DNA of 64,000 nt from Cercospora beticola (taxonomy: Eukaryota > Ascomycota > Dothideomycetes > Mycosphaerellales > Mycosphaerellaceae): NCBI RefSeq assembly GCF_033473495.1, contig NC_088938.1:3472001-3536000 (forward strand), given 5' to 3'. Below the pieces are notes generated by a model. The model did no database searches and was not told the DNA's origin. It worked only from the letters and a program-made list of their open reading frames with translations. This document shows, piece by piece, positions 1,531 through 42,460 of this stretch. Position 1 is the stretch's first letter, and every line of letters starts with the position of its first letter. The translations under genes and the position numbers were made by a program.

Positions 1531-1534
1531 ATTA

Positions 1535-3461: not shown

Positions 3462-3691
3462 TATTAATTTATATTCTCGTAGACACTCGTCGGATAGGTA
3501 TAATATAGTAGAAGTAGAGATAATAAGTAGGAACTAACCGAGTTAATTATATTAGTTAGTTATAAGTTATATCTTACTTCTAAGATAGGTATTAGCTAGG
3601 TTATATAACCTAGTATTATATAACCTATATTACCTAATTCTAATCTCTAAAGTATCTCTTAGAATATCTAACTAGACTATACTTTCTAATA
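3462..3691. repeat. LTR of element A, left copy
   Basis: 230 bp, nearly identical to 9127-9356. The differences seen are mostly C/T or G/A. Confidence 0.9.
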
Positions 3692-3729
3692 TATCTAAGC
3701 TATAAGGTATAGTAGGCTAAATACTAGTA

Positions 3730-4390
3730 GGATAGAAAGTAAGAAAGAAATAAAGAAAAGAGAAGAGTAAAAGTAGAAGAGGAATAACTACTAGTATAGA
3801 AAACTACTACCTTCTATATAGTTAGACTAACTCTATATAAAGGACTTACTAGACTAGAAAGTATAATAGTTATACTCTTAAGAATAGAGTATATTAGAAT
3901 AAAGTAATACTTTACTAAAAGGAGAGTCCTAGGATTTATACTAGACTACGAATATAGATAGAGGTATAAGATACTAAAATATATATATATATTCTACCTA
4001 AAATAGAATAAGAGAAGATACCTACTATTCTAGATAGAAGGATCTATAAACTAGAAGAATCTAGCTAATATAAAGAGAGAGCTATATATAGTAGTAAAGT
4101 AGCTTATTTAAGAAGAGGTCCTAGACTAATTCTTACTTATAAGAGAAGAGGTATAGAAGAATAAGAGAAGAGAGAAGAGGAAGAATAGAGCCTAGTAAAA
4201 GGAGGACTTACTAGATACCTAGTATTATCCGAAGGAAAATAGAAGCAAAGGAAGTAGCTATATAGGCTATAAATAAAGAGATATATAAGAGTTTTTCGAA
4301 GACTTTTTCTTCGACCGAAATCTATAGAGTATACTACTTACTCTAGTTAAAAAGAGATAGACTAGCGTATAAGAATTATCTATCTATCTA
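3730..4390 (+). repeat. Left arm of a long diverged inverted repeat
   Basis: In blocks it matches the reverse complement of 8003-8720. The best block is 4321-4389 against 8003-8072 (for example GTA-ACTACTTACTCTAG and TATAAGAATTATCTATCTAT on both arms). Weaker but collinear blocks continue outwards around GATACCTACT and AGATACTAAA. A short hairpin (CTAAAATACTTCT and its near complement) lies just inside at 4418-4452. The family is unknown. Confidence 0.6.
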
Positions 4391-4874
4391 TTAAAGTATA
4401 GATACTTAGTAATACTTCTAAAATACTTCTTCTTATAGAAGTAGTATTTTAGCTTTATATCTTAGATTTCTCTACTCTTAGTAAATATTACTATTTCTTA
4501 TAACTAGTATCTATACTATATTAACTTCTTTACTTTAAGGAGTTAGAGGATTTCTTTAGAGTCTAAGTTCTCCTAAGCTTAAATAGTCTACTTTATACTT
4601 TTATACTTAGCTAGAAGTATAAAGAGTAGATACTTAATCCTTATATTAGAAGTCTTATAGTATAACTCTCTCTAGTTAATTTCTATAATCCTTCTTCTAA
4701 GATTACTAAAGTAGACTTATAATTTCCTAATTATATTTTCTAGTTCTATTTTAAAGGTTATAAATTCTTAGATAATAGCTATTATATATACTTATTAGAC
4801 TTTACTATATTTTATATATAGCTTTATCTAGATATTATATACTCTTATTTTATCTATTACTTTATTTTAGTTAT

Positions 4875-5090
4875 TATTAAATATAGAGGTCTAACCTATC
4901 TAGTTATAGCGGAATAAGGCAAAGTAAAACCCTCTATAGTAAGTAGTTAGAGAGGCTTAGGTTACTATCTACTATAAGCCTATAAAGAAATACTTTCTAC
5001 TAAGAATTCCTAAAGCCTAAGATACTACTTACCTAAGGCCTAACTATTAGATAGAGAGATATAGTATCTATAGAATCTTAAATCGTAATA
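4875..5090. repeat. LTR of element B, left copy
   Basis: 216 bp, near-identical to 6991-7206; preceded by target duplication GTTAT at 4870-4874. Confidence 0.93.
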
Positions 5091-6979
5091 CTCCCTCTAA
5101 TAGCCTATCTCTTAATAGCTAGTACCCTTCCTTAGTCTTATTCTTTATTATAGTAAAGGCTCTAGCTTTACCTATATTTCTAAAAGCTAAGACTATACTT
5201 CTTATAGGTTCTAGATACTAATAGCTTAATAGTAAGTATCTCTTCTCTTAATATAGAGTATACTACCTAGCTTTAAATAACTCTAAGTTATTTGTCCTCT
5301 TTCTCTTTTATTATTATCTCTATATAGCTCTTATAGTATAAGCTAAATACTCTAATTCTCTCTCTAGTTTAGGTTGCCTAGGTATCTCTACTTCTTTCTC
5401 TTCTAGAATAGAAAGGATATTATTAGATAATAAGTATAGTTAGATATCTATAGTATCTCTAATAGATAACTAAGATTTAGGTAGGCTACTAAGCAGAACT
5501 TAGATTCTATTCTTAGGTTTAACTACCTCTACTATTGCTAGCTAGGCCTCCCTTATCTTCTTTCTAAGTAATAGTAAGCTAGACTATACTTATAATATAC
5601 TCTATAAACTTGTTATTTAAAAGGTAAAGTACTACTATACTAGTTTCCTTCCTAATATCTTATTATCCTTATACTTCTTCTTTAGCTCTTACTAGATAGC
5701 CTTTGCTATCTCTTTCTCTAATACTACCTCTTTATTCTCTTTACTAATATAAAGCTAAATCTAGTAGATTGTTTTATAGTTTGCCTTATTAGTTATTAGA
5801 GCAGATATTAAGATCTTAATAGTTAAGTATAGGTCTTCTTCTTTAAGGAATATAGCTATCTTTCTAAACTATTATTCTAAGTTCTCCTTAGAGAGTACTA
5901 GATATAGTCTCTTTACTAAAGTACTATTTATCTTATCTTATTCCTATCTTGTCTTCTAAAGAGTTAACTTTAAGTATATATATTACTAAGTTCTTCTAAC
6001 TATAGCTAAGAAATAAATTTGTTTTATATAGTAAACTAGGACCTATATATCTTAGTATTTAGTTCTTAGTATATATATAGGTAGAAATTCCCTTATACTA
6101 GACTATCTAGTAGAGGATTAACTATACTAAGACTTCTCTCTCTTAGCTAGAGCTTCTAGGACTCTATCTTCTAAGTAGCTCTAGAGTAGGTATTATACTC
6201 TAGGCCTTATATATAGTATATATATTAATAGCTAAAGGAGTATACCTCTCTAGTACTCTCTAGTATAGGAACCTCCTAGTACTACTATATTTATAATAAA
6301 GGTAGGTTTATAACTCTTCTTAATCTTAGGTATATTAGTTTATCTAACTAGGTCTCTAAAGCCTAATTATCTAATCCTCCTTTAGATTCTAGAGATAGTA
6401 AGAGGTTTAGTTAGTCTCTAAAGTATTATTAGCTAATAGTAGGTCTCTCTAGAACTTGCCTTATAACTATTCTAACTAAATATAACCTACCTAGTATAAA
6501 CTAATCCTCTAGCCTTATAAGATCTTCCTTTAAATAGGTAGTAAGTTCTATCTATATAGCTATCTTTAGGAGACTCCTTCTCTCTCTAATAGCCTAACTA
6601 CTCTTCTAACTTTATTCTCTTCTACTTTCTAGTAGTAGGAAATACTAGACTAACTCCTAGTATTATTAGACTATAACTTTTATTTACTAAGTACCTAGCC
6701 TAGGTACCTTATAGAGTTTGTTCTCTATCTTTATATAGCTATATAGTATATTCTTCTACTTAGGACTAATATATATTAGATATTCTATCTACCTATATAT
6801 ACTATTCTTTCTACTATCTAGTTTATACCTATAAGACTACTCCTCTTACTTCTAACTCTTTTATAGCTTTAGATCCTACTATTACTTTTAAGTCTCTTAC
6901 TAGAGTATCTTAACTCCTACCGGGAGTACTTACTATTATATCCTCTAGCTCCTAGCTTTCTAGCTACGATATAAACCTA

Positions 6980-6990
6980 GGCTTATAACC
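6980..6990 (-). other. Primer-binding site of element B (half-tRNA iMet type)
   Basis: The + strand reads GGCTTATAACC, touching the LTR. The anticodon arm of fungal initiator tRNA-Met contains GGCTCATAACC. The only difference is C to T in a CpA context, the RIP mutation. Drosophila copia and yeast Ty5 are known to prime from this internal tRNA region. Confidence 0.75.
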
Positions 6991-7206
6991 TATTAAATAT
7001 AGGAGTCTAACCTATCTAGTTATAGCGGAATAAGGCAAAGTAAAACCCTCTATAGTAAGTAGTTAGAGAGGCTTAGGTTACTATCTACTATAAGCCTATA
7101 AAGAAATACTCTCTACTAAGAATTCCTAAAGTCTAAGGTACTACTTACCTAAGGCCTAACTATTAGATAGAGAGATATAGTATCTATAGAATCTTAAATC
7201 GTAATA
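6991..7206. repeat. LTR of element B, right copy (5' LTR in element orientation)
   Basis: 216 bp, followed by target duplication GTTAT at 7207-7211. Confidence 0.93.
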
Positions 7207-8002
7207 GTTATCTATATAAAGACTTTCTATTAGAATATAGATTACCTTTATATTATTCTTCTACTATTTTAGACTAAACTCTAAAAAGGTAGTATCTTTC
7301 CTTTTACTTAATAAAGTCTTAGATACTTTAGCTAGAGTAGATACTAATAATCTTTTATACTAATAATCTCTTTAAGTCTAAGATTATCTAGAAGATTTCT
7401 TTTCTTCTAAGTATATTTTCTTATAGCTTAAACTATAGTTTCTAGTTCTCTCTTATTAATATTAGTATTCTCCTTCTATTTAATTTACTTATTAAATCTA
7501 TTCTATAAAATTAAATAAATAAACCTAAACTCTAGAAATATAAGCTCTTTTAATCTAATTAGTAGCTTCTAGATTTCTACTTTCTCTAGTTACTAAAACT
7601 TTTCTCTTTTAGCTAAGATATCTAAGAACTCTCTTCTTTTATAGAAGTTAGTTAGATTTTTAAGTAGAGAACTTCTAAAAGATCTACCTTCTTAGAAGAG
7701 TACTACTAGCTAGTTCTAAAGTATTAGTAGTACTTAGTACTTAGGCCTAGTCTTATCTACTTAGGTACTATAGTCTAAAGCTAATTCTTTCCTCTTTATA
7801 CTTCTTTAGTATACCTCTCTTTTAAAGCAAAGTATACTTTACTAGGCTTTTCTCTATCTTACCTACTCTTTAAGGACTTCTAGCTTATAACTAGAATCTT
7901 CTAAAGCTTTAAGATAGTATAGATAAGATATACTTCTAGTCTCTCTTATACTCTTTTCCTACTTCTCTATCTAGTTAATACTATAGGTTCTATAAGAAGT
8001 AA

Positions 8003-8720
8003 TATATAGATAGATAATTCTTATATACTAGTCTACCTCTTTTAACTAGAGTAAGTAGTACGCTCTATATTTTTCGTAGGTAGAAAAGCTCTCGTACTAG
8101 TACTTTAGTAGAAAAACCTTCTCTTATTTTTATATTTTATAGTAAGCTCTATATAGCCTACCGCTTCTATAGTTTCTAGTTCTCCTTAGAATAATTTATA
8201 TTATCTTAATAGTTTAGATCCTTTATAGTAGTTCTTCTTAGTTATTTCTTATATTATTAGTACTTAGGAGCCCGATCCTCTTACTTACTAGCTTAGAGAC
8301 TTAAGCCTATATATATAGTCTTAGTTTCTACGCTAGTATCTATATTAATCCTATATCTAACTCTTTCTTACTAGTTCCTAGAGTAGGTATCTTTCTATAT
8401 AAATTCTACTTAGATTTTAACTTTCTTTAGTATCTAGTTATATAACCTATATCTAGAGAAATTCTAGTTTTTATAGAATATCTAGAATAGTAAGTATCTT
8501 TATAGGTAGCTCTAAGTATAGTATAGAGTTAGATAGCTTATATTAGATACTCTACCTTTAGACTTAAAGTTTCTAGAGAGCTCTAGAGTAGAGAGACTAG
8601 TCTATCTTAGAGTCTTCTATTTAGATAAAAGGCTCCTAGTAGCTAATTATCCTAGTATCTATAGAGGTACTACTATTCCTTTCTTCTATTTCTACTATCC
8701 TTACTCTTTCTTATTAAAGT
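8003..8720 (-). repeat. Right arm of the long diverged inverted repeat
   Basis: Reverse-complement partner of 3730-4390. The two arms may be opposed copies of one transposon, or the ends of a larger element into which B inserted. Confidence 0.55.
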
Positions 8721-9115
8721 CTTCTCTTAAATATACTTAGTTCCTTCTTTTTAGCCTATTTAGAGTCTAGGTTACTACTCTAGCCTCTAGATCTATAGTA
8801 GTATTTACTACTTAGAAGAGCTATCTCGTAGTCGAGTATTAGAATCTTATAGTAGTTATACTACGCTAGCGTCGTCTTCGTATTCTTAGAAGCTCTCTAA
8901 TCTCTTTAAGTCGAAATTCTAGACTTTTTTTTATTACCTTCTTTCTATCTCTATAAGTACCTAGTCGCTCTATACTTTACTAGTATAGCCGAAGCTATCT
9001 ATTTCTACCTACGACTACGTAGAGGTATATAATAGGACTTCGTAGGTAGGTAATATATATTACTTTAAGAATAAGAAAGCTAACTCTTTCTACTTAGAGC
9101 CTCTCTATAAACCTA

Positions 9116-9126
9116 GGCTTATAACC
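9116..9126 (-). other. Primer-binding site of element A (half-tRNA iMet type)
   Basis: The same GGCTTATAACC lies directly inside the right LTR of element A. The preceding bases (TATAAACCTA) are also shared with element B. Confidence 0.75.
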
Positions 9127-9356
9127 TATTAAATTATATTCTCGTAGGTACTCGTTAGATAGGTATAATATAGTAGAAGTAGAGATAATAAGTAGGAACT
9201 AATCGAGTTAATTATATTAATTAGTTATAAGTTATATCTTACTTCTAAGATAGGTATTAGCTAGGTTATATAACCTAGTATTATATAACCTATATTACCT
9301 AATTCTAATCTCTAAAGTATCTCTTAGAATATCTAACTAGACTATACTTTCTAATA
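9127..9356. repeat. LTR of element A, right copy (5' LTR in element orientation)
   Basis: 230-bp partner of 3462-3691. It immediately follows the primer-binding site at 9116-9126. Confidence 0.9.
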
Positions 9357-12300
9357 AAAGAAACTATAACGATATATTTCTAGTAACGCTTCTAGTAATA
9401 GAAAGAGAAACTATACTAGTAATCGCCGAATAAGTAGTAGAAATATAAACCTCTAGTTAATAGTAAGTAGGTCGAAAGTTAGTATATTAGCTCGTTATAT
9501 AGAGTAGCTTATTTCGTAGTAAAGGATATTATACTCTAATAGGAAAATAATATAAATAATAATAGTACTAAAAAGAGTAATAAATATATTTAAGTAGAAA
9601 GTAAGGTCGATATCGAGTAGATCGCGCTAGTCTAGTATAAGACTAGGCTTAATAATATTACTATAGAAGTACTAAGCTTAAAGGTAGAGAGATAGATAGT
9701 AGATAAAAAGAGCTACTAGGTCGTAACGAGAGTACGTAGTAAGAAGATAAATTATATAGTAGCTAAAGCGGTCCGAGGCGCTCGAGTAGTATTTTAGTCT
9801 AACTAGCTAGTTAAAGTATCGAAGAAAAGAAGAACTAAAGAGTAGCTAAGTAAGACTATAAGAGAAAGAATAGTAATAGAGTAGATCTAGAGCTTTAAGA
9901 TACTTATTATCTAGCTTATTAATTAAAATAAGAACTAGTAAAAGAAGGTAGAGAAGTAGAAGTAGGAGATCGATACTTTTTAGAATAAAATCGAGACGAT
10001 ATAGAAGCTCCTCTAGTAGAGTAAACTAGCTAGAGCTACTTATATAATAGCTATAATAATAGATATAAAAGTAGTACTAACAGCCGACGCTACTTAGCCT
10101 CCGAGAGTAGACCGAGTAGTATACTTATAGAGGCTACGAGTCGAAGATAATAGAAGCGTAATTACTATTAATACTATATACTTTAGAAATAAGAAGACGA
10201 ATTTCGCGCTAGTAAGAGTAGGTCTATAATAGGGCAACGATACTACGCTAGTAGTCTAAGAGGTTAAAATTAAGTATTTTTAGTAGCTACTAAGTAAAAG
10301 GATTAATATAGTATTTATAAGTAAAGTAGATATAGTTAAAGCTAAAAAGTACTTAAGCTAGCTAAATATTATAATACTAGAGATCTATATAAAGAGCGAT
10401 ATATAGTATTCTATTAAATATAATATAGTATCGAAGTAAGTAGTTCTCGATATAATAGTTAAAAGAAGTCGTAGCCTCTATAGAGAGATATATATAGAAT
10501 TCGTAGTAGATAATCGGAGAGACGATATAGACTTTATAGCGATAAAGATAAGCTAGCTTAATAAGATAGACTTAAGGAAAAGGACTAGCTCTCTTATTAT
10601 CTAGTTAAAGAATAAAATAGTAGTAGATTATTTACTTAAAGTAAGTTAGGCTCTCTTTAGTAGTAAAGTATATAGAGCTTTCTACTTCTACTACGAACCG
10701 AGTATAGCGAATAAAATATACTTTAACTATAATATATATAGCTATCTCTAAGGAGCGTACTAAAGAGCTATAAGATATAGAAATTATATAGGTTTATATT
10801 AAATATAAAACTACTAGAGTCGGAACTCTCCGAAGTATATAGTATATATAGGCGAGTATCGAAGTTCTAATTAGATATATAAGTAGTACCTCTATTATAG
10901 ATAGTATCTCGCTATCTAAGTATAATAGTTATCGATATATAAAATAATACTTATAGAAGAAATCGAGATAGGAAATATAGTACTAAATTAATAATAGAAT
11001 ATCTATAGGTTCTTTACTATAATATTAGTAGGTAGAAATATATATAGTAGAGTATATTAAGTAACGAGGCGTACTCTTAGTTTATAGTTCTCGTAGTTAT
11101 AGAGCTATATCTATACGTAGATCTAAGTATAGAAGAGATATAGTATTAGAGCTACTAGAAATAGAAGCTACTTACCTTAATAGTATAATAAGAGTATAGC
11201 TCCGGCTAGTTCGTATACTACTCTATACTCTAGGTTAGTACTAGTATACTAGCTATCTAAGTCTCTATACTCTTATATAATATTATAGTAGTAGTAATTA
11301 CTATATCCGAAAGGAAGATACTCGTAGTATTAGCCTATAACTCTAACGAAGAGGATAGCTATATCGAGAAGTATAAAGTAATCTACTAGAAGTTAGTATA
11401 TATCCGCTAGGCTATTAACGAAGCGTAAGCTCGGTAGAGTAAAGTAATCGAGATCTTAATCTACTCTAACTTTAACCGATACTATTCTTTTTAGAAAGAA
11501 GATAAAATCCTTATAAAGTAGAGAAAGATAGAGAGAATACTAATTATATACTTCGCTTAAGAATTCGGCCTATAGTCTATATTACTTATAAGAACTATAT
11601 TACTAGAGAATATATTAGTAAGAACTTATACTCGACGATCGATATTATCTTAGCTAGCTTAGAGCTAGTAGGTTAGCTAATATAGTATTACGCTTATAAG
11701 TATAACTATAGTTCTAACTATAGAGTAATTAAGATCGAATTTACTATACGAGTACTATAACTATAGTCTAGACCGAGTCGCCTACTACTAGAAAAGGTAA
11801 ACTAGTTATAAATCGGCCTAGAAGTAGTATAATAGCTATAGTCGGTCCGCCTACTTATAGTAGCTACGATAGAGATACTAGATAATACTATAGAGCGCTT
11901 TCTCTAGATCGTAAAAGATATTATCTATTAATACGTACTATAGGCGAAGCTATCTCTATATACGAAAAGATAGTAGTTATTCGACTTTATACTATTATAG
12001 AAGACGCTCTTAGTATCTCGTAACTATATAATAACTCTATAGCGATAAGAGGAAAATATATTAGAGATAAGATAAGCTTATTAGAAGTTCTATAAGAAGT
12101 ACTTCTAGTATATAGAGAAGTAGAAGAGAGAATATTAGAAAGAGTTCTTAGTAGAACTCGAATAATATCTAGAAAGTAAATAGCTATACTTATACTATAT
12201 CCTAGGCGAATATAGTTCTAATATTAGTAAAAGATAATACTATAGTAGAGATAGACGAAGCGAAAGCCGATATACTAATAGTAATATTCTTTCCTATTCT

Positions 12301-15096
12301 ACTAGAACTAAAGTCGAGTAGATAGGCGAGTTAGACGCGAATAATAGTATAAAAGCCGAGTATACTTTATAAACTTCTATATATTATATCCGAAGAGATA
12401 TACTAGGCTATCTTCTAGTAGAACTCGAAAAAAGTACTTAGAGAAGACGAGATTATATTCGATATCTAGAGGCGCCTTCTATAGTATATCGGCTTATAGA
12501 TATAATAGATATACTAAATATCGCTAGATCTAGGCTACGTCCTCTATTCGTAGCGGACGACTAGGATTATCGCGCTAAAGAAACCGAGTAAGTCCGACTA
12601 TATAGAATCTAAAGTATATCGACTAATCTTATTATTACTAACGATTAGTAAAGGCCTCGAAGCTATTATTATAGCGAGGCTATTATACTTTATAGAGAGG
12701 TTTATTTTACTACCTACTAATTATTTCGGTATATAGAAGTAGTACTCCTATAAGTAGGCGTTAGACGTTTTAATCGAGAAGATTTATAAAGTATAGAAAG
12801 AGAAGCGTATACTCTCTCTTATAATATTCGATATATAAGGAGCCTTTAATAGAGTATACCTTATAGTCTTAGTATAGTAGTTATAAGAGCGAAGTATTCT
12901 AGATTAGATAGTATAATAGATTCGTAGTTTCTATAAAGATCGGACTAGGAGCGTCGTAATAGGTAACTATACGTCCGAATATATATCTATTAGCTATACT
13001 AGTATACTATAAAAGTCTCTGCTCTCTTCTATTCTATATATATTCTATAACGTAGACTTAGTAGAAAGTAAAATCGATAAGTATAGTAGGTCGCTCGAGT
13101 TTGTCGACGATTTTATAGCGTAGTAGATAGGCGCTAGCTATAAGGAAACTACCGAAAAACTATAGGTAGAAGTATTATAATAGGCAGAGTAGTAGTTAGA
13201 GAATAGTAGAGCGACGTTCGAAGTAAGTAAAACTAGGTTTATCTACTTTAAATAAATAGTATCGGACGTAGTAGCGAATACTATTCTATACTTCTTCGAT
13301 AGCGAGATTCGATCTTAGAATACTATTAAGATCCTAGGAGTTATATTAGATATATAGCTAAATATAATAGTATACTTTAATAGAATTATTATAATAGTAA
13401 CGAAAAAATATCTAGCTATTAGGTAGCTATAGAGTATTCGGCCGAAGTAGGTACGCTAGCTATATCGAGTAGTAATCGATACTATAACTAATTATATAGT
13501 ATCTATATAGTACGCTCTAGGAAAGCTTAGAGTCTAATAGTATATTACTTAGCTCTAAAAGATCTAGTAGATAGATATATAAGCGATTATTAGTACTTTC
13601 TATATAGTCTCTTCTAGTATTCTCTAAAATAAAGTAGTACTAGAAGTAATTAAAATACGACTAGTAAGGAAGATAGCTAAATACGTACTAGATATAAGAG
13701 CGCTACTATAGTAATATCTATTATAGTCTATTATAAACAATATAGAACGAAGGAACGACTAGAGTAAAAGCTTAATATTTACGATCTAGACCTAGTATTA
13801 TAAAGCTATTTAGAGTAAAAAGGAAGTCGGTATTACTCCGAAGCTCGTATATATATTATTACTATAGTATAACGTCTATAACGTCGCGCGAGTATATAAT
13901 AAAGTAGAAGTATACTATATTTATAAGTATCTACTAGTAACTCTATCTCGATACTAGCTATACTATATTAATATATTAGTAAGGAATAGTTAGATAGGTA
14001 TTATAGTTATAAGATATATTTATATATTAGAAAGACTAATATATAAAGTTATATATTAAGAGACTATCGAGTAGGAAACAATATATACTACTACGAGTAT
14101 AGAGATCTATATAATTAAAATAGTACTCGAGTATATTAAAAAGGTAAATACTTTTATATAGATTATATCCGATAGTTAAGAAAGTCTATAGTAGATTAGT
14201 ACTAGTAGCTAATCGAAGAAGTTATAGAAGGTAGTATTAGCTACGTTCTAAGAAATCTAACTTATATAAGAAAGAGGCGTTACTATTAAGTTACTATAGA
14301 TATCTAGATATTATAGTATTATAGAGAATAAGAAAGTATATTATATAGCTTAAGAAACTATATCGATAGAATATATCTTAAGTATAGAACTTAGACGCTA
14401 GATATAGGAATATTCTAAAGCCTTTAGGCTACTTTAATTAGTAATCGAGGCCGACGTACTCTAGAAGATACTAGTATAGAGGAAATATACTTATATAATT
14501 AATAGTACTCTACTCGAGAGATATATACTCTAGCTATATAGAGCGCTAATATATAAAGATATAGGAATACTAGTATAAGTATAAACTAGCTATATCTATT
14601 TATATAAATACCTAGCTTATATATAGTAACTAGAGAGTATAGTCTATAAGTATAGAAGTAGAGTAGAGTCTATTAAGTATATAATTCTATATTATCTATT
14701 ATAGACTTCTTTATAACGAATATTAAAAGAAGTAGTAAGTAATAGATAGAGTAATATATTCTTTCTTTTAGAAAGAAAAAGTTAGAAGAAAGATCTAAGG
14801 ATAAGACTACTAGTTAATAGAAATAGATAGTAGCTAAACGTAGAGATAGTATAAGCTATAATTACGTTCCTTAAAAGTATAAATAGGTTTATACTTTAGA
14901 GCCTAACGTTAGATATCTAATAGTACTCTTACCGAGTAGCTCTTCTAGTTATACTCGTATAAAAACTAATATAGAAATATTTCTAAGTTAAGATAGTAAA
15001 TAAGAGTATAAACGTAAGGTTAATACTTAGGAATAGCTTATACGGATATTAGATCTATATATAGCTAGACTAAATAATATAATATAATATAATATA
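9357..15096 (+). mobile_element. Near-full-length Tad-like LINE, RIP-degraded
   Basis: With RIP stops read through, the + strand shows the expected order. About 10,690-10,900 has tyrosine-rich knuckle-like spacing, as if CCHC cysteines (TGC) had become TAC, so a gag-like ORF1. About 11,450-11,500 gives NFNRYYS in place of the endonuclease GDFN box. About 12,640-13,150 is a reverse transcriptase with FDI-GAFN, an SILYIFYN stretch and FVDDF. About 13,900-14,900 resembles an RNase H and C-terminal region. A TAATA-type simple repeat at 15,072-15,096 is a plausible 3' tail. CpG is well preserved here, unlike in the first LINE. Confidence 0.8.
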
Positions 15097-21689: not shown

Positions 21690-23666
21690 TGTAACAGTCG
21701 TGTGGTATGCTGACTTGCAGTTCGTGGTTCAGAGAAGTTTGGTTGCGAATAATGTGTCGTCTATCGACGGGAGATACTTTCTATACTCACGGATATGATG
21801 CTGTGGCGCGATCACGAGCACTAGGTGATCAGTCATCACAACGCAAATAATTTTCAAGTCTAACTAGACCTGTAGCGCACAAATCAACCCCAGAATGTCA
21901 AATTACGGCAGAACCGGGCCAGCGATTAGCGCGACTGTTTGTGATGGCATCATGCGAAGCGCAACATTTCCGGGTCCACTGCAAGTACGATCCCGCATAC
22001 GAAGCGTTGTCGACGGCCTGCCAGCGTTGCGCCAGGAACGCATCGCTCGATAAAGGTGCTAAAAACCTTACATTCCGATAGCGAAAATGCACAATCGACA
22101 GCGATGGCGTCACTGAACATCCAAGCTGCCAAAGGTGCCAGATTCTTCAATGTGGTGCGTGATTTCACGACCTTATTCAAAGATGCGCGATGCTTCCGCT
22201 CTAATTTTAGAACCTAATATCGGACCTTCTCTTACAAACGCGTGACTCCAGCGAGCCGTTCGTACCTTTCCGAAACACAAATGCACGCTAGTCTGGTTCC
22301 TGCAGCGCTGGCGAAATCCACTTGTATAGATGGTATGATGTTTTCTGCCGAGCATCGTTCGATTTAGCCATTAAAAGCATTGGTCACCTCCCTTTGTCCA
22401 GCACCACACCTGGTAATCCTACCCGGTTCACTTTCTACTCAAGTTTCTTATAGTTCTGCATATATTCAGCATGGCCGGCCTTCTACAACTCGAGAAAGAA
22501 GATAAGCAGTGTGATGCTTTTCGCAGTTTCTTCTAGGGCTGATGGAATGCTCTACATCCTTCTTTTAGGCGCTGATGGAATGCTCTATATCCTTCTTTTC
22601 GGCGCGACGCAGCTTCTCATTGAGCCTGTAATAGAATCCCTCAGCCGGACTCCAGGGACGACCTACCTACACATTGCTAAGATGACGACAAGAAAACTGA
22701 CTGGGGCTATGTGCCGCGGCGTTGCTCATCTTGGTTTCGGTCTTGGACACAAGTTAGTGCGTGACACGCCTCGAGGACTACAGACCGATATCTTGCTCTA
22801 GTATAACTACGGGAACTATCTACGGACCATTAGCCATGCCTCATATTCGCATGGGATGCACACAGGTCGATCGGTGTATGTACGTATCTGCATTCGTGAC
22901 AGGCGCAACAGTAAGCAGCATCGGGTCCGAGGTACCCGAAGACGCAGAAGAAATGTCTCCCAAATGCGGAACGTTTTGAACGGAAGGATGAAAATTGCGG
23001 TCTGTCATTTGCGTAGGATGAATTTGTCGGAGGGACGTAGCTCACGGTCTTATAGGAAGCTGTCGAGACACGAATTCGTCATCGACGAGGAAGGCGAAGT
23101 GAACAGGAGTTCTATCCGACTAAATAACCTGGCCTCCGCAAAGGATACATGAAATTGGGTTTCTCGACCGCTTGATACTATGTTATATATTTCACTCTAG
23201 TGCTTGCATCCAAAAGGTATACAGAACCTCTGCGTTCTGGAGGGAGAGGTGGCATCTTGTCTCTGACGTTACGTGTTGAGGTTGTCTTCCTGGAGTGTGG
23301 TTGATAGCGTTTGGCCTAGGTGTCGAATTGTTGAACCCTCAGCGTTGATGAATCGTGAATAGGCACATGCGGCATCGCAAATGACTGACGAATCCGAGGA
23401 GCTTAGTAATCACAAATCTGCTCAGTCTCTCACGTTCACAAGTGGCCAGGGCTCCGGCAGCCCCCCACCCCCTCGGGTTCCCTCGTATAGCCCATCCATC
23501 GAGTGGTAGGTCTTCCAGGGTAGAGCTCTCCGGCTAGCACGGAAAAATCTCAATTTCGAGACCAACTTACAAAAGTTGAAAAGGGCTAGATACATTCACC
23601 GCGTGCTATAAGAAAGCTTTCACATGTATCGACACCTCAGCAGGAACCTAAGAGTCGGACCTGAAA
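21690..23666. other. Two-kilobase stretch with no recognisable gene
   Basis: Only short unrelated frames occur, on both strands. Apart from the tandem repeat at 22538-22603, nothing is recognised. Confidence 0.5.
22538..22603. repeat. Two tandem copies of a 33-bp unit
   Basis: Copy 1 is 22538-22570 and copy 2 is 22571-22603, with two mismatches. The unit begins GCTGATGGAATGC. It lies in a 96-codon frame (22511-22801) that I do not believe to be a gene. Confidence 0.9.
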
Positions 23667-24290
23667 TTGAGCCTGCCCACGAATTTGCAAAGTTCTGATC
23701 AATCGATCATCATGGCCCCTGCGGAGATCTGTAATCCGCCAGTCCCAATTATGGCTACAGTGTGGCACGCATTTGGGAACGCGGTAAAGAGAAAGCCTCA
23801 ATACAATGCCTACACGATGTGTTATCAGCCGGCGGATCATCTCCAAGAGCTTCGATGCGAACCACACGCGCCTCGAGCAGGCCACCTGAACTGGAACTTT
23901 GCTGATCTGGAGTATGCAACAGTGCGACTGGCTGCTGGCATGCTCGATCGAGGCGTCAAGCGAGGTTCCACCATTGTAACATTCTTACTCAATGGCATCG
24001 AGCGAGAGCTCTGCCTGTGGGTATCTGTCGCCCTGCAACTCACTCTCCTACCCTGTGATCCGGCATTGCTGCTCCCAGGTCGTGAGGAGCAGCTTGAGCA
24101 CTTTCTTACGTCCGTCACACCGGAAGTTATAGTATTGAGTAATGATCAGGCAGCAGCAGCGTGGGAAGAGCGGACCACAGAAGATGATTCGTTCAAGATA
24201 TGTCTGGAGCCCATTTCTCGACCAGGATGGCTCCACTTCTCTGCCCTACCACATCCGCAGCGCGAATATAACGAAGAGTGGAATATTATT
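23667..24290 (+). pseudogene. N-terminal fragment of an adenylate-forming (AMP-binding) enzyme
   Basis: The frame encodes the front third of an AMP-dependent synthetase/ligase-type protein: a FGNAVKRKPQYNAYT opening, then a DLEYATVRLAAGMLDRGVKRGSTI block (usual 'l...s..lA..L...GV.kGD.V') and a VALQLTLLPCDPALL block. The P-loop-like TSGTTGxPK core, the ATP-binding motifs and the whole C-terminal domain are absent. Family similarity stops near 24,290, where the - strand recombinase gene ends; beyond that the + frame is only the antisense of that gene. ATG 23712 (MAPAEICNPP) is a likely original start, ATG 23667 the upstream alternative. This is a broken gene, and no remainder of it is found elsewhere in the window. 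Confidence 0.7.
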
Positions 24291-26044
24291 GACCAGCAAG
24301 ATCCATGCTGCGGGGCTTGTAGACTGGCACACCGTGACTCGCCTCTAGATGGCCCCAGAAGTTGTCGGCATCAATGCGATCCGCGCAAAGCGGGTGTGGA
24401 CAGGTTATAGGCCATTTTGCTGACGTGAGATGGCACTGTGCCAGGTGGGAATAAAGTTTGTGCAGACTCTTGTACTGGAAAAACCTCTTCCTCGGTTTTA
24501 AGGTGTCATCACCCAAGCAAAACACACACTTCGATGCCAGTAGCGTAACTCCTCTCATGGTGCTGTGGCCGCAGTACAAGTCCTTGAGACCTTGAAGGTG
24601 CAGCGAACAATGATGGTCCCATTTAAGTGGGGTGTCAAAGTACCTTTGACACTGGTAGCAGTAGTGCATCTCGGGAAGGGTATCGGGCAGTGGGAGCAAG
24701 TGCAGCTGGAGCATATGCATCTTCAAGTCGGTTGAAGAGGTCGTTTCGTACTCACATAGATCCCAATGACAGCGCCCAGTTGCGGTGACAAGGTGATGCT
24801 GGATGTGCACTGCCAGAGATTCAATGTCAAGCCCATGCAACTTAGCGTTGCACCCTTGCCATTGACAAGAGAGATGCTGTTTGTCAAGTTGTGACTGTAA
24901 CCAAGTCAATGTCCTATGTTGCTGCTGGCGAAGGAAACAGCTAAGCAGGTGATTATTCTGGTGTACCCAGGAACGAGAAAGCCCCAATCCACAGGCAGTG
25001 CAGGAATCTGCAGCCGATACTGCTGTACCAGCGTATCGCCATGGCAGGTGGCCAGCCCGTAGAAGCTCAAGGATGGGATTTATCATCGCCTCTGAGCTAA
25101 ATCTTGGGCAGCTCTGTGTCCCTTGATAAAGCGCGCAGATCTCAGCTCGAGAGGTGTCCCATTGCAGACATGCGACACTTTGTTGACTGGGGCCAGGAGG
25201 TATCACATGTGGGATATTAAGGTAGGGTAGTAGGTCGTCCAAGGCCCGCAAGCTTTCGGCGCAAGGAGCCACTATCTGCGTCGTCAAACACTGTGATGTC
25301 GCCGACTGGAGAAGAGCTACAAGGTACTGTTGGTGGCCTCGTTTGCACTCGAAGCTCGATTGAAGTTCCCGTTTCGTCAATCTCTGCCGAAGAATGGAAA
25401 GATCAAGTCCCTTAGCGAGCCCGGAGCGCTCAACCAATTGTGTTACAAGGTGATCGAAACGCCGTGCTCGCAACGGAACAGGTTCGGTGGCACGATGTCC
25501 TCGGAGAAGTCCGCCTCGGAGAATGGGGATCTCGCCCATTCCCGAGACTACTGGAATACGTTGTATAGCGTGTCCTGGTAGGTGCCGTAAAGATGATATG
25601 TCTTCAATGGAGTGTATGTTTTGCAAAGCACCATCCTGGATTGCCAATGCAAATAGAGCTGCCAATGGACATGTGTCTCGCGGTTCGAGGTCCTCCAGCA
25701 GGGTCAGTGTGTTGCTATCGGACACATTAGTACGCGGAGATCCATTGTCAACTCAAGACTTGCCTCCCATCTGAGTTATCCGGAAGCTCAATGTCGATGC
25801 CTAAACGGCGACCATCGCCGTCTTTTATTGCTAGAAACTTGATATGCTTATAGAGCAGGCCATGGCTCCTGCTAGATCCCACCACCTCGCGTGGCCTAGC
25901 ACCTGTAGAGTAAAGAAGTTGGAACAGTAGGGTAAGCTGAATGCGCTCGCGTGGATGCTCATACTCGTATTCATCCAGCGACCAGAGGTAATGAATCAAG
26001 TGTCGGATCGCTGCGTAAGACTCTTCGGGCAGCATAGTGAAAGT
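24286..26044 (-). CDS. Truncated DUF3435-type tyrosine-recombinase paralogue with zinc fingers (copy 1)
   Basis: A short front exon contains TGARPREVV, the first catalytic Arg motif of DUF3435 tyrosine recombinases. The second exon holds the CPLAALFALAIQDGA block and then many Cys/His modules (for example MHYCYQCQRYF and CPHPLCADRIDADNFWGHL). The two join across a 49-nt GC-AG intron (25715-25763; donor GCAAGT, branch TACTAAT, acceptor TAG) in phase 2, the same position and phase as in the paralogue at 29,055-32,085. From ATG 26035 this gives about 566 aa. Missing compared with copy 2 are the N-terminal core-binding domain and the MGH...HYL segment with the catalytic Tyr; the box-II Tyr is also not conserved. 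Recombinase activity is therefore unlikely, yet 479 codons of the main exon remain open. DNA binding through the fingers remains possible. Confidence 0.75.
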
Positions 26045-29054: not shown

Positions 29055-32000
29055 CTAGTAGACTCCCGACCAGATGGCGTGTCGGTCCTCTGCAACGCAT
29101 GGCCGCTTCTTTTGACGTCTAACCCTTTGAGTGCTATGGCCTTTGACGCGTGATGACTTTTTGTCGACGGGGTCTTGAGACAATTCCTGCGTTGCAGCCA
29201 ATAAGTGGTTCCTGTGACGTTGCATCGCGGTGCGAGGTAAAGCCGTGCGGGCAGATGGCTCGACCGGTGTCGCTTCTTGCGTGAGATCGATGGTTTCTGT
29301 CCACGTATCTACTGTAGAGCGCTCAAGATCAACCATCCTCTCATCGTTTCTTATATCGTGTTCCAAGCTCGATGTCGTAATTTGGCCGGCAGGCGCACAA
29401 GCACCGCCGGTGAGCATTGCTTGAGTGAGATCAAGATCGATCCTGCTTGGATCTCCACTAACATCACACTCCGGCAATGTCGTGATTGAATCGACAGACG
29501 CACAAGTATCGCTGAGGAGTGATGTTACTGCCAGCAACCGCTCGTATGCCTTTGTATCCTTCTTTGGTCCTTCGATGCCATGCTTTGCGTGAAAGTGGTC
29601 CCAGAACAGCTCAGCAGAAGTGATCTGATATTCGCAGAGAGGATGCGGGCAAGTGAAGGTACATGTGGTGATATTGCCCAGATGGTCGATCAGATGATTA
29701 TAGAAATGTGCTCCGAGTCGGTGGGGCGATGCTCTTTGAGCTGGCGGCAGGGAAACAGCTCCTAGGCAGAATGGACAGCGGCAAGCCACGAGGATCACAT
29801 TTCTCCTGAGGATCTGGCCACAGAACATGCTTGGATCTTCAACATGTTTGCGATTGTGCTCGTCCCACTCCAGTGCCGAGGGAAAGTAAGTTCGGCAATC
29901 GTAACAATAGTGCAACGCTGGTAGCGTGTCGGGGAGCGGCAGGGAATGATGGTGTAGGATGTGGAGGCGGAGCTCGGCAGCCGAACTAGGGGTTGAGAGA
30001 CAGTCCGGCCACAGACACCAAGTGGCGTGTTTTCCGAGGCGTTTCGACTTCTGCTGCCGGAGGCGTTTCGACTCGTGTTTCCTGAGATGCATCGCAATGT
30101 GTTTGGCGATAGATGGAAGAGCTAGCCTCGCGAGATCCCGGCTACATCTCGGCAAAGGACAGACAGCATGAAGCTTCTCGATCCGTCGGGACAATCTCAA
30201 AGTTAGCTCTTCGCTGCGCCTACGCATGTAACAACAGAGCAAGTGGTAATTGAACATAGCAGTGTCTCGCTCCCTGAACTGTCTGTTAGCAAGACGATGA
30301 GTGTACTAATGTTCGGGTTCCATACCTTGACTGGACGATTCCGCACTCACAACCGCCATCTGAGCCAAGGACTGTTTCCGGGTACCTCCATGTACTAGAG
30401 TCGGTGCCAGCGATGGATGTAAGGGGCTCTAGCATGTCTTCCAGCTGCAACCCTTGCTCCGGCTTGCGCTTGTAAAACATCTGGATGATTCTGCTCCGGT
30501 CCGTGTCCCACTGAAGGTATCTGTCGAACACAGCGCTTGGAACAGGACGGCCGCGCGAGACTTCCTGTGCTGCCAGGACATACTCCTTGTCGTGAAGCTC
30601 TGGCCGCGCGACGGCCGTTGCAAATGCTGAAGGCGAGTCAAAGTACTGTTTCCTCTCGTCACGGTGGGCTTGGAGACCTGCCCGCTGATTGTGACGTCCC
30701 GTGTCAGTCAAGGAAGCACCTGCTGGCTCAGGAGCATTCACATCGACACTTGAGGCCATTGAAGCCACACGGTCCAGCACATCTTGCTCCATAGGTCGAC
30801 CCAGGACCATAGACTGCCCATCGATGGTGGAGAACTTATTAAGATAATGCTGGAACGTTTGCGAGTTAGCGTGTCCCATCCTCTGTTGACGTCTAGCGGC
30901 TGACACGGCCCCTGGTACTATTAGCTATCGCTTAATTGACACCGTGATGTTACATACTGTCAAGCAAACCGCCATGACCCCTCCAGATGGTGTACGGTGT
31001 AAAACGTTCGCGATGACCAGCTCGGTGCCCCAGTGCTTCCATTACAGGGCCGAGCTCCTTGCAGGTGGCAATTTTCTCTTGCGAGGTGGCTTTGCCACGT
31101 CCTTCTAGGCGGCGCAGTACTGGAACTTTCTTCATGCTCTCTCGGACGCGGAGACGTTGAAATACATCCGGCGGTGGGGTGGCAATGTTCCTGATATCGG
31201 CGGCGCTGTGGACATCCTCGAAAGCGCCATCCGCAAGTGCTAGCGCGAACAACTGTGCGACTGGGCACAGTTCCGGCCGTTCAAATTCCTGGAGCAACGC
31301 CATGCTGGTGCTAGACTGCGAGTTAGAGTAGCATGGCGCAAGGCTTACGGAAACACCTACTCTTTGACGCGCAAGCCGCGGACCCCCTTACGGTTCCGCA
31401 GCTGCACTTCGATCGCGAAACGACGTCGGCCTTCGTGAAGCAAAACCATGACGTCCAAGTCGCCGTAGAACACACCCTCGTTGCCCCCTGAATGAGACGA
31501 AGATTCGATAAACTCCCCGGGACGGATGCCGAAGTAGAGGAGCAGAGTGATCGAGAACGAAAGTTGCAGTCGCATGCGTGGATGATCGAACTCGTGTTCG
31601 TCGAGCGCCCACAGGAAGTATAGGATGTCGATGACGACCGCGGGCGTTGCTACTGGCCTCGGCATAGCCTCCCGGGAAGCTCCTCTCTGCGCGAGTCCTC
31701 CGTTCACGTAGTTGCGCAGGTTTTCAGAAGTCCTTAGCGAAATTGGGGTTCCACCATGTCTATCGCGGAAGAGCCTTCTCAGCTGAATGAGATACTTCTT
31801 GAACGTCTGGACCGTAAGCTTTCCGCCCAGCTTTCCCTTCCTCTTAAGCAAGCACCATAGGAAGAAGGCCTGTAGTTGAGCCTCGCCCGGAATAGATGAC
31901 CAGGCATCTTCGGTCGCGGATGGGTTGCAGCAGTCCTTGTAGTAGTCCTCCCACGCGCGTCGCACCACTCCAAGGGTATTCTTGTATGCTTGAGAGTCCC

Positions 32001-32085
32001 GCGCCTCCGAGGGGATCGTGTAGTCTGGACACTTGTTTGCCTGGAGACTACGGATCTCCGCCAGCAGTTCTGCGTCGTCAGCCAT
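29055..32085 (-). CDS. Intact DUF3435-type tyrosine recombinase with C-terminal zinc-finger array (copy 2)
   Basis: Four exons are inferred: complement(join(29055..30282,30326..30911,30958..31310,31361..32085)), about 963 aa. Introns are 50 nt (GTAGGT...TAG), 46 nt (GTATGT...CAG) and 43 nt (GTATGG...CAG; this last acceptor is the least certain). Residues 60-140 look like the helical core-binding domain. Visible catalytic candidates are Arg188 (FGIRPGE), Tyr348 and Arg352 (PYTIWRGHG), His373 (RMGHANSQTF) and Tyr382 (QHYLN), followed by the family's VLGRP phrase. From about residue 560 several C2H2/CxxC modules follow (LHYCYDCRTYF, CRCPFCLG, CPHPLCEYQITSAELFWDHF), then a disordered basic tail. 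DUF3435 proteins include the 'captain' recombinases that move Starship giant elements. Whether this one is a captain or a relative is not shown by the sequence alone. Confidence 0.82.
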
Positions 32086-32466
32086 AGTTGTTCACTATGC
32101 TCGTGTGTAAAGTCGTGAGGAACCCATTACTGCCGCGAGCCCCGGCCAGGCGGCCTTCTTGTGGCGGTCTGCCCACGACGTCGCTAGAGTTATGCATAGT
32201 ATGCACAATGCTCCTGGAGAACGCGGATTCCAAGACGCTGGAAACAGGATCAAGAAATCCAAAAAGATGTTCGGATACCCGGTTATCGAATCCTAATAAT
32301 GGGATAGCGCTCGGTTACGGATCCTGGAAGGGGGCACGACGGCCGACCAAAAAGATGATTTGCATCGTCCGTGAATCGCTGGATCGGTATTAGTGGTACA
32401 TCAAGATTGACTCACTCAGCCAATACTTACAACACGGGGCCCGTCGACGCTGCAGCATTAGCGCCG

Positions 32467-32495
32467 AAAAGTTGGCGATTCTGTCTGGCAACGAC
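32467..32495. repeat. 29-bp direct repeat, copy 1
   Basis: Matches 32634-32662 with one mismatch; the shared core is AAAAGTTGGCGA followed by TCTGTCTGGCAACGAC. It is about 380 bp upstream of the intact recombinase start. Confidence 0.9.
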
Positions 32496-32633
32496 GGATT
32501 TTACCACTAAACCAACGATGCTTGATGGTGACCGAAGTTGTAGACAATATATGTTCCCTCAACGCGGCTTGCAGCCAAGACTAGTTCGTAACCAATCAAA
32601 AGAGCCGGCTCCAGACTCAGTGGACCAATGAGA

Positions 32634-32662
32634 AAAAGTTGGCGAATCTGTCTGGCAACGAC
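32634..32662. repeat. 29-bp direct repeat, copy 2
   Basis: Same orientation as copy 1, with the starts 167 bp apart. Similar TTACC-AAACCA bases follow both copies. Confidence 0.9.
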
Positions 32663-33931
32663 AGCCTTACCGAAAAACCACTACATCGCAGCACGAGCGG
32701 AAGCACCGCGCCCCGACGAAGCGATGCCATATTCAGTACTGTACACCGACGGTCAAAGGGACGATACAATTCCATACTTACTGTGTACTTTAAGACAGCA
32801 ACCCTTGGATAACAATCGATTTCCAGACACGTCATGTCGAAAATCTCTTTTCTGTTAGACCCGGGCGAATTTCTTAAAGATGGGTTTGCTCGCATGCCTT
32901 ACGCAGCTCACCGCGTCAATGGAGCTCATTGACTCTTCTTTCCTTGGTCGCCGACGACGAATCTTGCTCTTTTGGAATGCCCGGACATGGAGCGCCACAT
33001 CCTTGTCTATGGAGTGGAGAAATTTCCGGCAACCGGGCTGCTGGAACGTTATCAAAGACTACTGTAACATTACCAAAGACTGCTTAAAGCTTGCCTCAGA
33101 CTGCTAATCATGTTTGACTGGAAGTCGTAGGCATCGATCCCTACAGTCTGTCACTTGCAGTCTGGGAAACCCAAGCGGGACAAACACCTGGCAAAGTGCC
33201 CTGCAAACTCAGTTTGGAGCTCCGCTTATTAATGCATTTGACAGACCGTAGCATGCAGTATGATTGCTCGATCGCGCAGACTTGCTCTGACATGGGTTGA
33301 ATGACTGCACGAGAGCTCGATGTGCTTGATCTCTTCAAAGGCGTTCGATCAGCAAATCAAGGACACTGAACACCCCGGCATAGCTTCGATACTGAGCTCG
33401 ACAGAGCTTGTTTCCCTATCTTGGTGCAATGTGCAACAGGTGAACACCTCTCCGTCATTCTTATGGTATGCAATACCAGCACATTGCCGAAAGCATGTTT
33501 TGCTATGCGATAGAACCCCAGTACTTGCAGCCGCAGGCCCGCAGCCGGGGTTGGACACTGACTTCTAGACGATCATTAGGTATTGCGTCTAACTTAGAGT
33601 CTCTCCGATGCGACCCAGTTGGTGAACACAATGCTTAAGCACATCAGAAGTCGCTAATTGGTCGGCCTTCGACCAAGATCAACTTATGATAGCCCTTCAA
33701 GGGGCCAAGCTTGACCCCAGCTGCGATTGCATGGCCGCAGTATTGGGGCTGCATGCCCACAGCAGCACAGTCAGCGGAGTATAACTGCTGCTCTGATGCA
33801 CTGAAGGCTTTTCACGGTATTGTTGAAGCTTTCTCGTTCTCCAAGGGACGTTTGACATCACTGGAATCTTTGCATACATGGGCCTTTGCATGGTCGACTC
33901 ATCGGCTCCAGACTACGGACAGCGCGCAGAC

Positions 33932-40621: not shown

Positions 40622-40670
40622 ACTAACGTGTTTGATAAGTATGTGAATCAGATAGGCATGTGCATCAACT
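40622..40670. repeat. Left terminal inverted repeat of the pogo element
   Basis: 49 bp beginning ACTAACGTG; matches the reverse complement of 42412-42460 with two mismatches, both of RIP type. Confidence 0.92.
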
Positions 40671-42411
40671 TTACGAGGTGGATAACTTTGATTCTTAATA
40701 TCTTATGCTATAGGTGTTAGAACTACCTCAAAGATGGATTAATTGAATGCTCAGAAGTTACTCTATCTAATAGACAACCTCTTGAGTTGTGTCCTTGGAT
40801 ACTATACTTGCTGCAGGTTAGTTTAGCTCTTGGCTGTCTCTTAATCTAACTAACTAATTCTATTGCTATTTAAGCCTATAACTATGCTATGTCTCTAGCA
40901 GCTAATTTATTAGTATTAAGGTTAAGTGTTAGCTTGATTTTCTTCCTTAGTGCCCTATAAGACTATAATTCTTTAATTATAGTCTTTATATTATTATGTT
41001 TAGCCTAGAGTAATATTATAGTAGCCTATAACCTTTTAAACCCTCTTAATAACCTATCTACTACCTTAAGGATTAAGGTTAGTAAGCTATTCTAGTAGTT
41101 AATAACTCTATCCTTAATCTTGCTTATTTGCTTCTTAATCTGCCTTAGATTCTAAGAGGTATTCTATATATCTAATAAACAAAGTAGTAGTAGTAGAGTT
41201 AGTGTTTTATAACGTAGTATTAGCTTAGATAATATAGCCTCTAGATCTAGTAGTAATAAGCCTAAGCCTCTAAAGGCTACCTTAATATTCTAAGAAGTAA
41301 ATATAGCCTTATAGGTAGGCTTAATTTAAGGTAAGAAGTCTTCCTTAATTAGGTAGTAATATCTAACTATACTAAGCCTTTAGATTCTAGCTAAATATAC
41401 CTTCTTTAATAGACTAAAATAGCTAATATCTAAAGGCTAGAGTAAGTAAGAAGAATATAGTAGTATATAGAGAGTAATAATACCTTATTCCTTATAGAAT
41501 AACTTAAACTCTAGCACTATATAGCTATTATAGCTATCTAGAATTAAGAGCCTCTTTTAGCTAATAGTTCTATACTTAGTATAGTTATTAAAGTACTAGA
41601 TCTACTAGACTATATAATTATAGGATATCTAGCCTTTTAGACTAACTCTAAGCTTCTAGTTTAGTAGTAGGTATTTGAACTAGGCTCTGTTTATTTCCTT
41701 ACTAGAGAAGATAACGTATAGAGGCACTAACTAGCCTTCTATATTAATATAGGCAATAATAGTCTACTACTACGTTAAATTAGAGACTAAGGCCTTAGGT
41801 CGTTGCCTACGCTCTATAGCAGTTATAACTATAGTATTCTTACTATATCTAAGCCTAAATCCACTCTCGTTAAAGTTATAAATGTCGTATTATATAATTC
41901 TATAGAAGGCTATTATGTTGTAAACGAGCCTAAACTACTCTAAGATAACCTCTAGATCCTTATTCTTTGCCCTTTAGCTTAATAACCTCCGTAATAGCCT
42001 TGTTTCTAAGCCTAGATAACGATTAACAAAGTTATAAGCCTGTCTTTAGCCAACCTCTTGTCTATTCCGTACTTTAGTTATTAAGGACGCCCAGCTTCTA
42101 ATTACAGCCTATGTTGGCGAGTAACTACGTGAATCTAGGTCCAGAATCTTCTGATAAACTACCTCCTCTTTAACCGGAGTTAAGGCTCTGTTCGTTGGCG
42201 GTGTACTAGTCTTTGGAGCCGTACTATAGAGTCTGCGGTTGACAGTAGAATATTTGACTCCGTAGGCGGCTGCAGCGCGTCGCACGCTTGGAAATCGACC
42301 TAACAGGTAATTACGAACAGCATTCTGAATACACTCTTCGTTTGGAGGTGCCATCGCGTAAAATGGTGGAATAATGGACGCGTTTAGTAATAGTGGTGGA
42401 TACGAGATGGA

Positions 42412-42460
42412 AGTTGATGCACATGCCTATCTGATTCACATGCTTATCAAATACGTTAGT
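42412..42460. repeat. Right terminal inverted repeat of the pogo element
   Basis: 49-bp inverted partner of 40622-40670, ending CGTTAGT. Confidence 0.92.

What the first reader, a model, noticed from the sequence alone, without database searches (positions are those of the whole stretch)
29055..32085. Intact DUF3435 tyrosine recombinase fused to a multi-zinc-finger array
Four exons assemble into one approximately 963-aa frame that keeps Arg188, Tyr348/Arg352, His373 and Tyr382, the residues expected of this recombinase family, followed by at least four Cys/His modules. DUF3435 recombinases are known to drive Starship giant mobile elements. A copy carrying its own zinc-finger array could choose targets differently. 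It may be a live mobility gene or a domesticated one.
Basis: partly seen in the sequence, partly recalled or inferred. Interest (0 to 1): 0.85.

Follow-up and report, generated by a model that had tools for sequence, protein, structure and literature searches.

The report
Zinc-finger captain-like recombinase, probably inactive
A leaf-spot fungus carries a gene related to the enzymes that move giant Starship transposons, joined to a zinc-binding array; the gene is real, but a key catalytic residue is replaced, so it is more likely a grounded relic or a DNA-binding leftover than a live mover.

Summary
On the minus strand, 32085 to 29055, four exons give about 960 aa with a strong DUF3435 match (E 3.3e-36) and six Cys/His modules. 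The genome is Cercospora beticola. The public model CB0940_05062 stops before the array because its third intron differs. The fusion also occurs in Aureobasidium pullulans, so it is a small existing subfamily.

'Intact' is probably wrong. By the match to XerA and the published Sanctuary/HhpA/Cre mapping, catalytic Arg-II is position 351: Arg in 8 of 9 aligned sequences, Trp only here.

No Starship was shown: no boundaries found, no DUF3723 match on this contig, no empty site testable. The gene is single copy at DNA level and free of RIP damage, while 19 of 22 DUF3435 loci carry stops. A second, decayed copy of the same architecture lies 3 kb away.

Best reading: a solo captain-like recombinase that has probably lost strand exchange. 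An adjacent tRNA-Gly gene with a spliceosome-like T-loop intron may be the more surprising thing here.

The parts
31361..32085 (-). exon 1, coding from ATG at 32085; holds Arg-I (R188) and K233
   Evidence: identical to P0001
30958..31310 (-). exon 2; holds Y348, W351, R352
   Evidence: identical to P0001
30983..30985 (-). codon of Trp351, the place of catalytic Arg-II
   Evidence: sequence
30326..30911 (-). exon 3; holds H373, Y382, and the first Cys pair of the array at its end
   Evidence: identical to P0001 up to GSDGG
29055..30273 (-). exon 4 with stop codon; zinc array and tail (acceptor 30283 is possible instead)
   Evidence: join inferred
29580..30245 (-). Cys/His array, residues 565-786
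24286..26029 (-). second, decayed copy of the same architecture: part of the recombinase core and the whole array in a 488-codon open frame
   Evidence: tblastn; alignment; single DNA copy
32361..32521 (-). tRNA-Gly(GCC) gene with two introns, just upstream of the recombinase; a neighbour, not a proven part of it

Best explanation
This is a solo, captain-like tyrosine recombinase gene of the DUF3435 family, from a small Cercospora-Aureobasidium subfamily whose members end in a Cys/His array. Shown: the domain, the array, the shared architecture, one DNA copy in this genome, no RIP damage, and Trp at the place of catalytic Arg-II. Inferred: the ancestor bound its target DNA with core and array and exchanged strands through the R-K-YxxR-H-Y active site. 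The present protein has probably lost efficient strand cleavage and rejoining because Arg-II is gone; it may still bind DNA through the array. It stays as a non-moving remnant beside an older, more decayed copy of the same kind.
For: DUF3435 E 3.3e-36. XerA match aligns the family's YxxR with HxxR of XerA, E 0.0059; best Foldseek rows 1-6 are XerH, E from 0.0064, on a weak model. Position 351: Arg in 8 of 9, Trp only here; spacing of Y348 and Y382 (34) equals that of Sanctuary Y424 and Y458. Cre and Flp mutants lacking Arg-I or Arg-II are described as rescuable by charge neutralisation of the phosphate (PMC4499138, abstract and passages). One DNA copy; RIP indices normal. 143 Starships against 10,628 orphan captain-like genes in one survey, so solo genes are the common case (PMC12289983, passages).
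Against: No activity was measured, and Trp at this place is not among the mutants in the passages I saw. P0001 and this genome may be one strain, so Trp may not be fixed in the species.
Confidence: 0.65

Rival explanations
1. Domesticated DNA-binding factor: catalysis was lost and the fungus keeps the gene for DNA binding through the array.
For: Both copies in the window kept the zinc ligands (24 of 24 listed positions in the second copy) while both lost catalytic residues by different routes; both frames are free of RIP damage. Weak fold match of the array to C2H2 DNA-binding arrays: rows 1-22 of 37, best E 0.011, model pLDDT 47.
Against: The array is less conserved than the core to P0003 (29% against 43-44%). 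The gene is only 59% identical to C. kikuchii P0002, whereas a gene 21 kb away is 94% and 89% identical to two other Cercospora. No selection test could be made.
Confidence: 0.17
2. Live captain of an undetected Starship: the Trp is tolerated (for example because R352 takes over) and the element lies leftward of the gene.
For: Open frame, gene reads away from the 32-34 kb flank, no RIP, Y348 and Y382 kept. Relatives were found only in C. kikuchii and A. pullulans, which is patchy.
Against: Arg-II replaced; position 352 is not strictly conserved (His in P0004). No convincing repeats at 15-41.5 kb; DUF3723 matches lie on C2, C3, C8 and C10, none on C4. The far end could lie outside the window.
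Confidence: 0.1
3. The 569-aa public model is right: recombinase and array are not one protein, and the array frame is not joined.
For: P0001 uses donor GTGAGT at 30350 and runs into a stop.
Against: A. pullulans P0003-P0005 hold core and array in one protein. In C. kikuchii P0002 the same donor place was read through (KR|YDIRSL against SR|YGTRTL). The join rebuilds the first Cys/His module. The array frame stays open with its ligands kept.
Confidence: 0.06

Closest known systems
Starship captains (DUF3435 tyrosine recombinases, such as HhpA of Hephaestus and the Sanctuary captain)
   Same: DUF3435 domain; Arg-I, YxxR tyrosine, nucleophile Tyr at the published spacing; a DNA-binding part at the C-terminus
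   Different: Arg-II is Trp; the array has six Cys/His modules; no element, direct repeats or cargo shown
DUF3435-array proteins of Aureobasidium pullulans (P0003-P0006) and the C. kikuchii core P0002
   Same: Same core and, in A. pullulans, the same array in the same order
   Different: They keep Arg at position 351; identity to the window protein only 32% (P0003) and 59% (P0002)
Other open DUF3435 gene of this genome, C4:1341362 (L042)
   Same: DUF3435 E 2.6e-8; open frame of 1147 codons; YSLRR and LMGH...Y motifs; Cys/His motifs near its end by eye
   Different: About 17% identity in the alignment; no clear zinc family (zf-Sec23_Sec24 at E 0.12)
XerA/XerH tyrosine recombinases
   Same: Active-site order by profile match and weak fold match
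   Different: No DUF3435 N-terminal part and no zinc array; HxxR intact in XerA

Membership tests
DUF3435 (PF11917) proteins | Profile match above the curated cut-off | tested here: met
   125.6 bits against 25.8, E 3.3e-36
Catalytically competent tyrosine recombinase / captain | Arg-I, Y/HxxR with Arg-II, His, nucleophile Tyr all present | tested here: not met
   Arg-I, Y348, H373, Y382 present; Arg-II (351) is Trp, Arg in the other 8 of 9
[quoted passage not shown]
   One genome only; no convincing repeat pair in 15-41.5 kb; flanking isolates not held
Starship element | Accessory genes such as DUF3723 nearby (typical, not required) | tested here: not met
   6 DUF3723 matches in the genome, none on contig C4; other accessory families not searched
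Captain with C-terminal DNA-binding part | DNA-binding domain after the recombinase domain | tested here: inconclusive
   Cys/His array conserved, weak fold match to C2H2 arrays, but no Pfam zinc family over its cut-off and intron 3 is inferred
Domesticated host gene | Same locus and purifying selection across relatives | not testable with these tools
   Only protein sequences of relatives could be fetched, so no dN/dS; gene order in C. kikuchii not obtained

The most novel reading that the evidence does not exclude
A DUF3435-zinc-array lineage in Cercospora has been turned from a mobile recombinase into a host DNA-binding protein: two neighbouring copies lost catalysis by different routes while both kept the zinc ligands, so the array, not the recombinase, is what the fungus uses.
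Probability: 0.15. Interest if true: 0.65.

Novelty: new variant of a known kind. Interest (0 to 1): 0.42.

Why it matters
Genome surveys count captain-like genes as signs of Starships. This case suggests that a DUF3435 gene with an open frame can lack the second catalytic arginine, and that a public gene model can hide the array behind a misplaced intron. It offers a test case for what solo captain-like genes do after they stop moving, and whether their C-terminal arrays keep a use.

Tried and rejected
tRNA half-site idea: a 29-bp repeat upstream of the gene matched a tRNA-Gly 5' half and looked like an integration site. Rejected after searches showed a whole tRNA-Gly gene with two introns, and that an apparent distal repeat about 57 kb away (C4:3447460) is a tRNA-like copy with the same kind of intron.

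Structure prediction: both models are weak (pLDDT 49.8 and 47.4), so their fold matches (none at E 0.001 or better) only support.

Gene order in C. kikuchii: I searched a neighbouring aminotransferase hoping for a C. kikuchii locus tag near CKM354_000931700. None of the 18 hits listed was named as C. kikuchii; the search gave only an identity yardstick.

A motif scan of four stop-riddled DUF3435 copies (L043-L046) by regular expression gave nothing usable. A permissive ARAGORN run on the upstream stretch listed ten low-quality tRNAs and did not settle anything. Rfam on 32086-33800 listed one irrelevant match, E 4.7. NCBIfam gave one weak XerA match for P0003, E 0.051, and none for the window pieces. 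Locus-tag search in papers: 0 papers.

Papers: I saw passages only of PMC12506042, PMC12134995, PMC12289983, PMC4499138, PMC8371274, PMC12257634, PMC13041039 and PMC8450103. All others were seen only in search listings, among them the two papers that hold 'DUF3435' and 'zinc finger' and the two. One paper held both 'Cercospora beticola' and 'Starship'; its passages make no claim about this gene. Recalled, from no call: the RIP sequence preference, the role of the B box, and DUF3723 as a usual Starship accessory.

Full report
What it is. The window lies in Cercospora beticola: the first 57% of the protein is 100% identical to CB0940_05062. The own genome held here has 36.07 Mb in 10 contigs; the window is C4:3472001-3536000. 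On the minus strand four exon parts (31361-32085, 30958-31310, 30326-30911, 29055-30273) give a 960-aa frame. Many splice choices leave the frame open (1632 combinations); I chose by splice signals and by relatives. Pfam DUF3435 matches residues 152-448 at E 3.3e-36.

Exons. Introns 1 and 2 agree with the public model P0001. Intron 3 does not: the public model uses the donor at 30350 and ends at 569 aa. Three points favour donor 30325. C. kikuchii P0002 was read straight through the same place (KR|YDIRSL against SR|YGTRTL). A. pullulans P0003-P0005 hold core and array in one protein. The join rebuilds the first Cys/His module. No transcript was available.

Zinc array. In six sequences that cover the array (exon 4 of the window, P0003, P0004, P0005, P0007, second window copy; P0006 dropped because it lacks the first modules) 47 columns are invariant, 23 of them Cys or His; binomial P 1e-7 against the local Cys/His content. 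This test ignores that Cys and His are often conserved in any protein. My grouping, in residues: H565/C569 with a Cys pair at the end of exon 3; C593-C598-H613-H617; C641-C646-H659-H664; C678-C681-H694-H698; C721-C724-H748-H752; C763-C768-H781-H786; C706 and H765 are conserved but unassigned. No Pfam zinc family passes its cut-off in the window protein. A weak model (pLDDT 47) has C2H2 zinc-finger arrays (CTCF, WT1, ZBTB24 and others) in rows 1-22 of 37, best E 0.011, none at 0.001.

Active site. A profile of 8 relatives matches one PDB chain, XerA, E 0.0059. It aligns 'YqGlRPGef' with 'YTGVRVGEL' (Arg-I, a sub-threshold stretch), 'YafrrG' with 'HVLRHT' (HxxR) and 'mGHksddtfqyY' with 'LGHASVATTQIY'. 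So catalytic Arg-II is three residues after Y348, position 351, not R352. PMC12506042 (passages) maps Sanctuary Y424 and R427 to Cre H289 and R292, again spacing three, and cites HhpA Y381 and Y416 as necessary. In the alignment of nine sequences position 351 is Arg in eight and Trp only in the window protein; position 352 is Arg in eight and His in P0004. Arg-I is Arg in 8 of 8 sequences that cover it; the nucleophile Tyr is there in 8 of 8 that cover it, and L049 has a gap. That K233 is the catalytic Lys is my inference; it is Lys in the 6 of 6 subfamily sequences that cover it. [quoted passage not shown] I read this as a defect on normal DNA. Trp was not among the mutants in the passages that I saw. 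Loss of strand exchange is therefore likely but not measured.

Copies and RIP. PF11917 gives 46 matches in this genome, which I merged (gaps under 3 kb) into 22 loci. Nineteen carry 2.5 to 13.9 TAG/TAA stops per 100 codons; three carry none: this gene, the second window copy and C4:1341362. A search with P0003 adds C3 matches with stops and one further open frame at C4:882088, 331 codons, whose nucleophile Tyr is not aligned. This gene has one DNA match in the genome, itself; so has the second copy. RIP index TpA/ApT is 0.66 for the gene and 1.9-2.1 for window 1-12 kb. C4:1341362 keeps YSLRR and has Cys/His motifs near its end by eye; Pfam gives only zf-Sec23_Sec24 at E 0.12.

Second copy. 24286-26029, minus strand, matches residues 144-229, 243-340 and 482-788 at about 32% identity. 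No match to the N-terminal part was listed. In the alignment the YxxR tyrosine is Ser and a stretch before the nucleophile is missing. It keeps 24 of 24 listed Cys/His positions in a 488-codon open frame.

Mobility. I found no element. Repeats in 15-41.5 kb gave no convincing pair around the gene, but an end outside the window was not excluded. DUF3723 has 6 matches in the genome, none on C4. The protein search listed 3 proteins among 7996 scored candidates: itself, C. kikuchii (59%) and A. pullulans (32%); a search from P0003 listed 6, the query included. Both score only candidates sharing exact words, so distant relatives are missed. A gene 21 kb to the right is 94% identical in C. berteroae and 89% in C. 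zeina. The recombinase thus evolves faster than a neighbour or has another history. Cluster members are hidden: the P0001 cluster has 2 members and the second may be another strain or a sister species. Base rate: 143 Starships against 10,628 orphan captain-like genes (PMC12289983, passages).

Verdict. Real gene, likely fusion, known family; 'intact' probably wrong; Starship not shown. Domestication is possible but not shown: the array is less conserved than the core to P0003 (29% against 43-44%).

Beside it. ARAGORN lists no tRNA in the window, yet a tRNA-Gly(GCC) gene lies at 32521-32361, 275 bases upstream of the start codon. It has a 38-nt intron at the usual place and a second intron of 52 nt (32430-32379) in the T-loop: GTGTT|GTAAGT...CACTAATACC...CAG|CGATTC, which splits the B box. 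With the second intron taken out ARAGORN accepts the rest. A split-B-box pattern has 5 matches in the genome, all at tRNA-Gly 3' ends; the pattern read backwards has 3. Three of the five are whole tRNA-Gly genes (window, C2:2130526, C3:1899422); two have no intact 5' half. Two paralogues lack it (C6:2827791, C9:1839007). Of seven other long tRNA matches that I looked at, two (L081, L082) seem by eye to hold a GTAAGT...AG insert elsewhere in the tRNA. Two paper searches listed nothing on this (titles only); the tRNAscan-SE 2.0 passages speak of noncanonical introns only for archaea.

Noticed in passing
window 32361-32521 (-), second intron 32379-32430; also C2:2130526 (L078), C3:1899422 (L079), C9:1839142 (L070), C4:3447471 (L072): A tRNA-Gly(GCC) gene with a second, GT-AG, spliceosome-like intron with a CTAAT/CTAAC-like branch site inside the T-loop, splitting the B box; 5 such sites in the genome, 3 of them whole tRNA-Gly genes, absent from two paralogues. 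ARAGORN misses it. Possibly spliceosomal introns in Pol III genes.
   Followed up: partly
L081 (C5:2081413-2081583) and L082 (C1:2334043-2334210): Two other tRNA genes that by eye hold GTAAGT...AG inserts outside the usual intron place (2 of 7 long tRNA matches looked at).
   Followed up: partly
window 32634-32662 (-): A second, degenerate piece of tRNA-Gly exon 1 and intron 1, 167 bp from the first.
   Followed up: partly
window 24286-26029 (-): Second DUF3435-array copy: core decayed, zinc ligands kept, no RIP.
   Followed up: partly
window 40622-42460: AT-rich 1.8-kb element with 50-nt inverted repeats (96%); four other near full-length copies in the genome at 84-92% and many pieces.
   Followed up: partly
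window 1-15000: Block of about 28% G+C with strong RIP indices and a sharp edge near 15 kb.
   Followed up: no
window 23652-24407 (+): Fragment with a sub-threshold AMP-binding match (E 8.5e-6), overlapping the 3' end of the second copy.
   Followed up: no
P0008, 686 aa: Metagenome protein with the same recombinase core joined to a kinase-like domain (PF01636 precomputed), perhaps a merged gene model.
   Followed up: no
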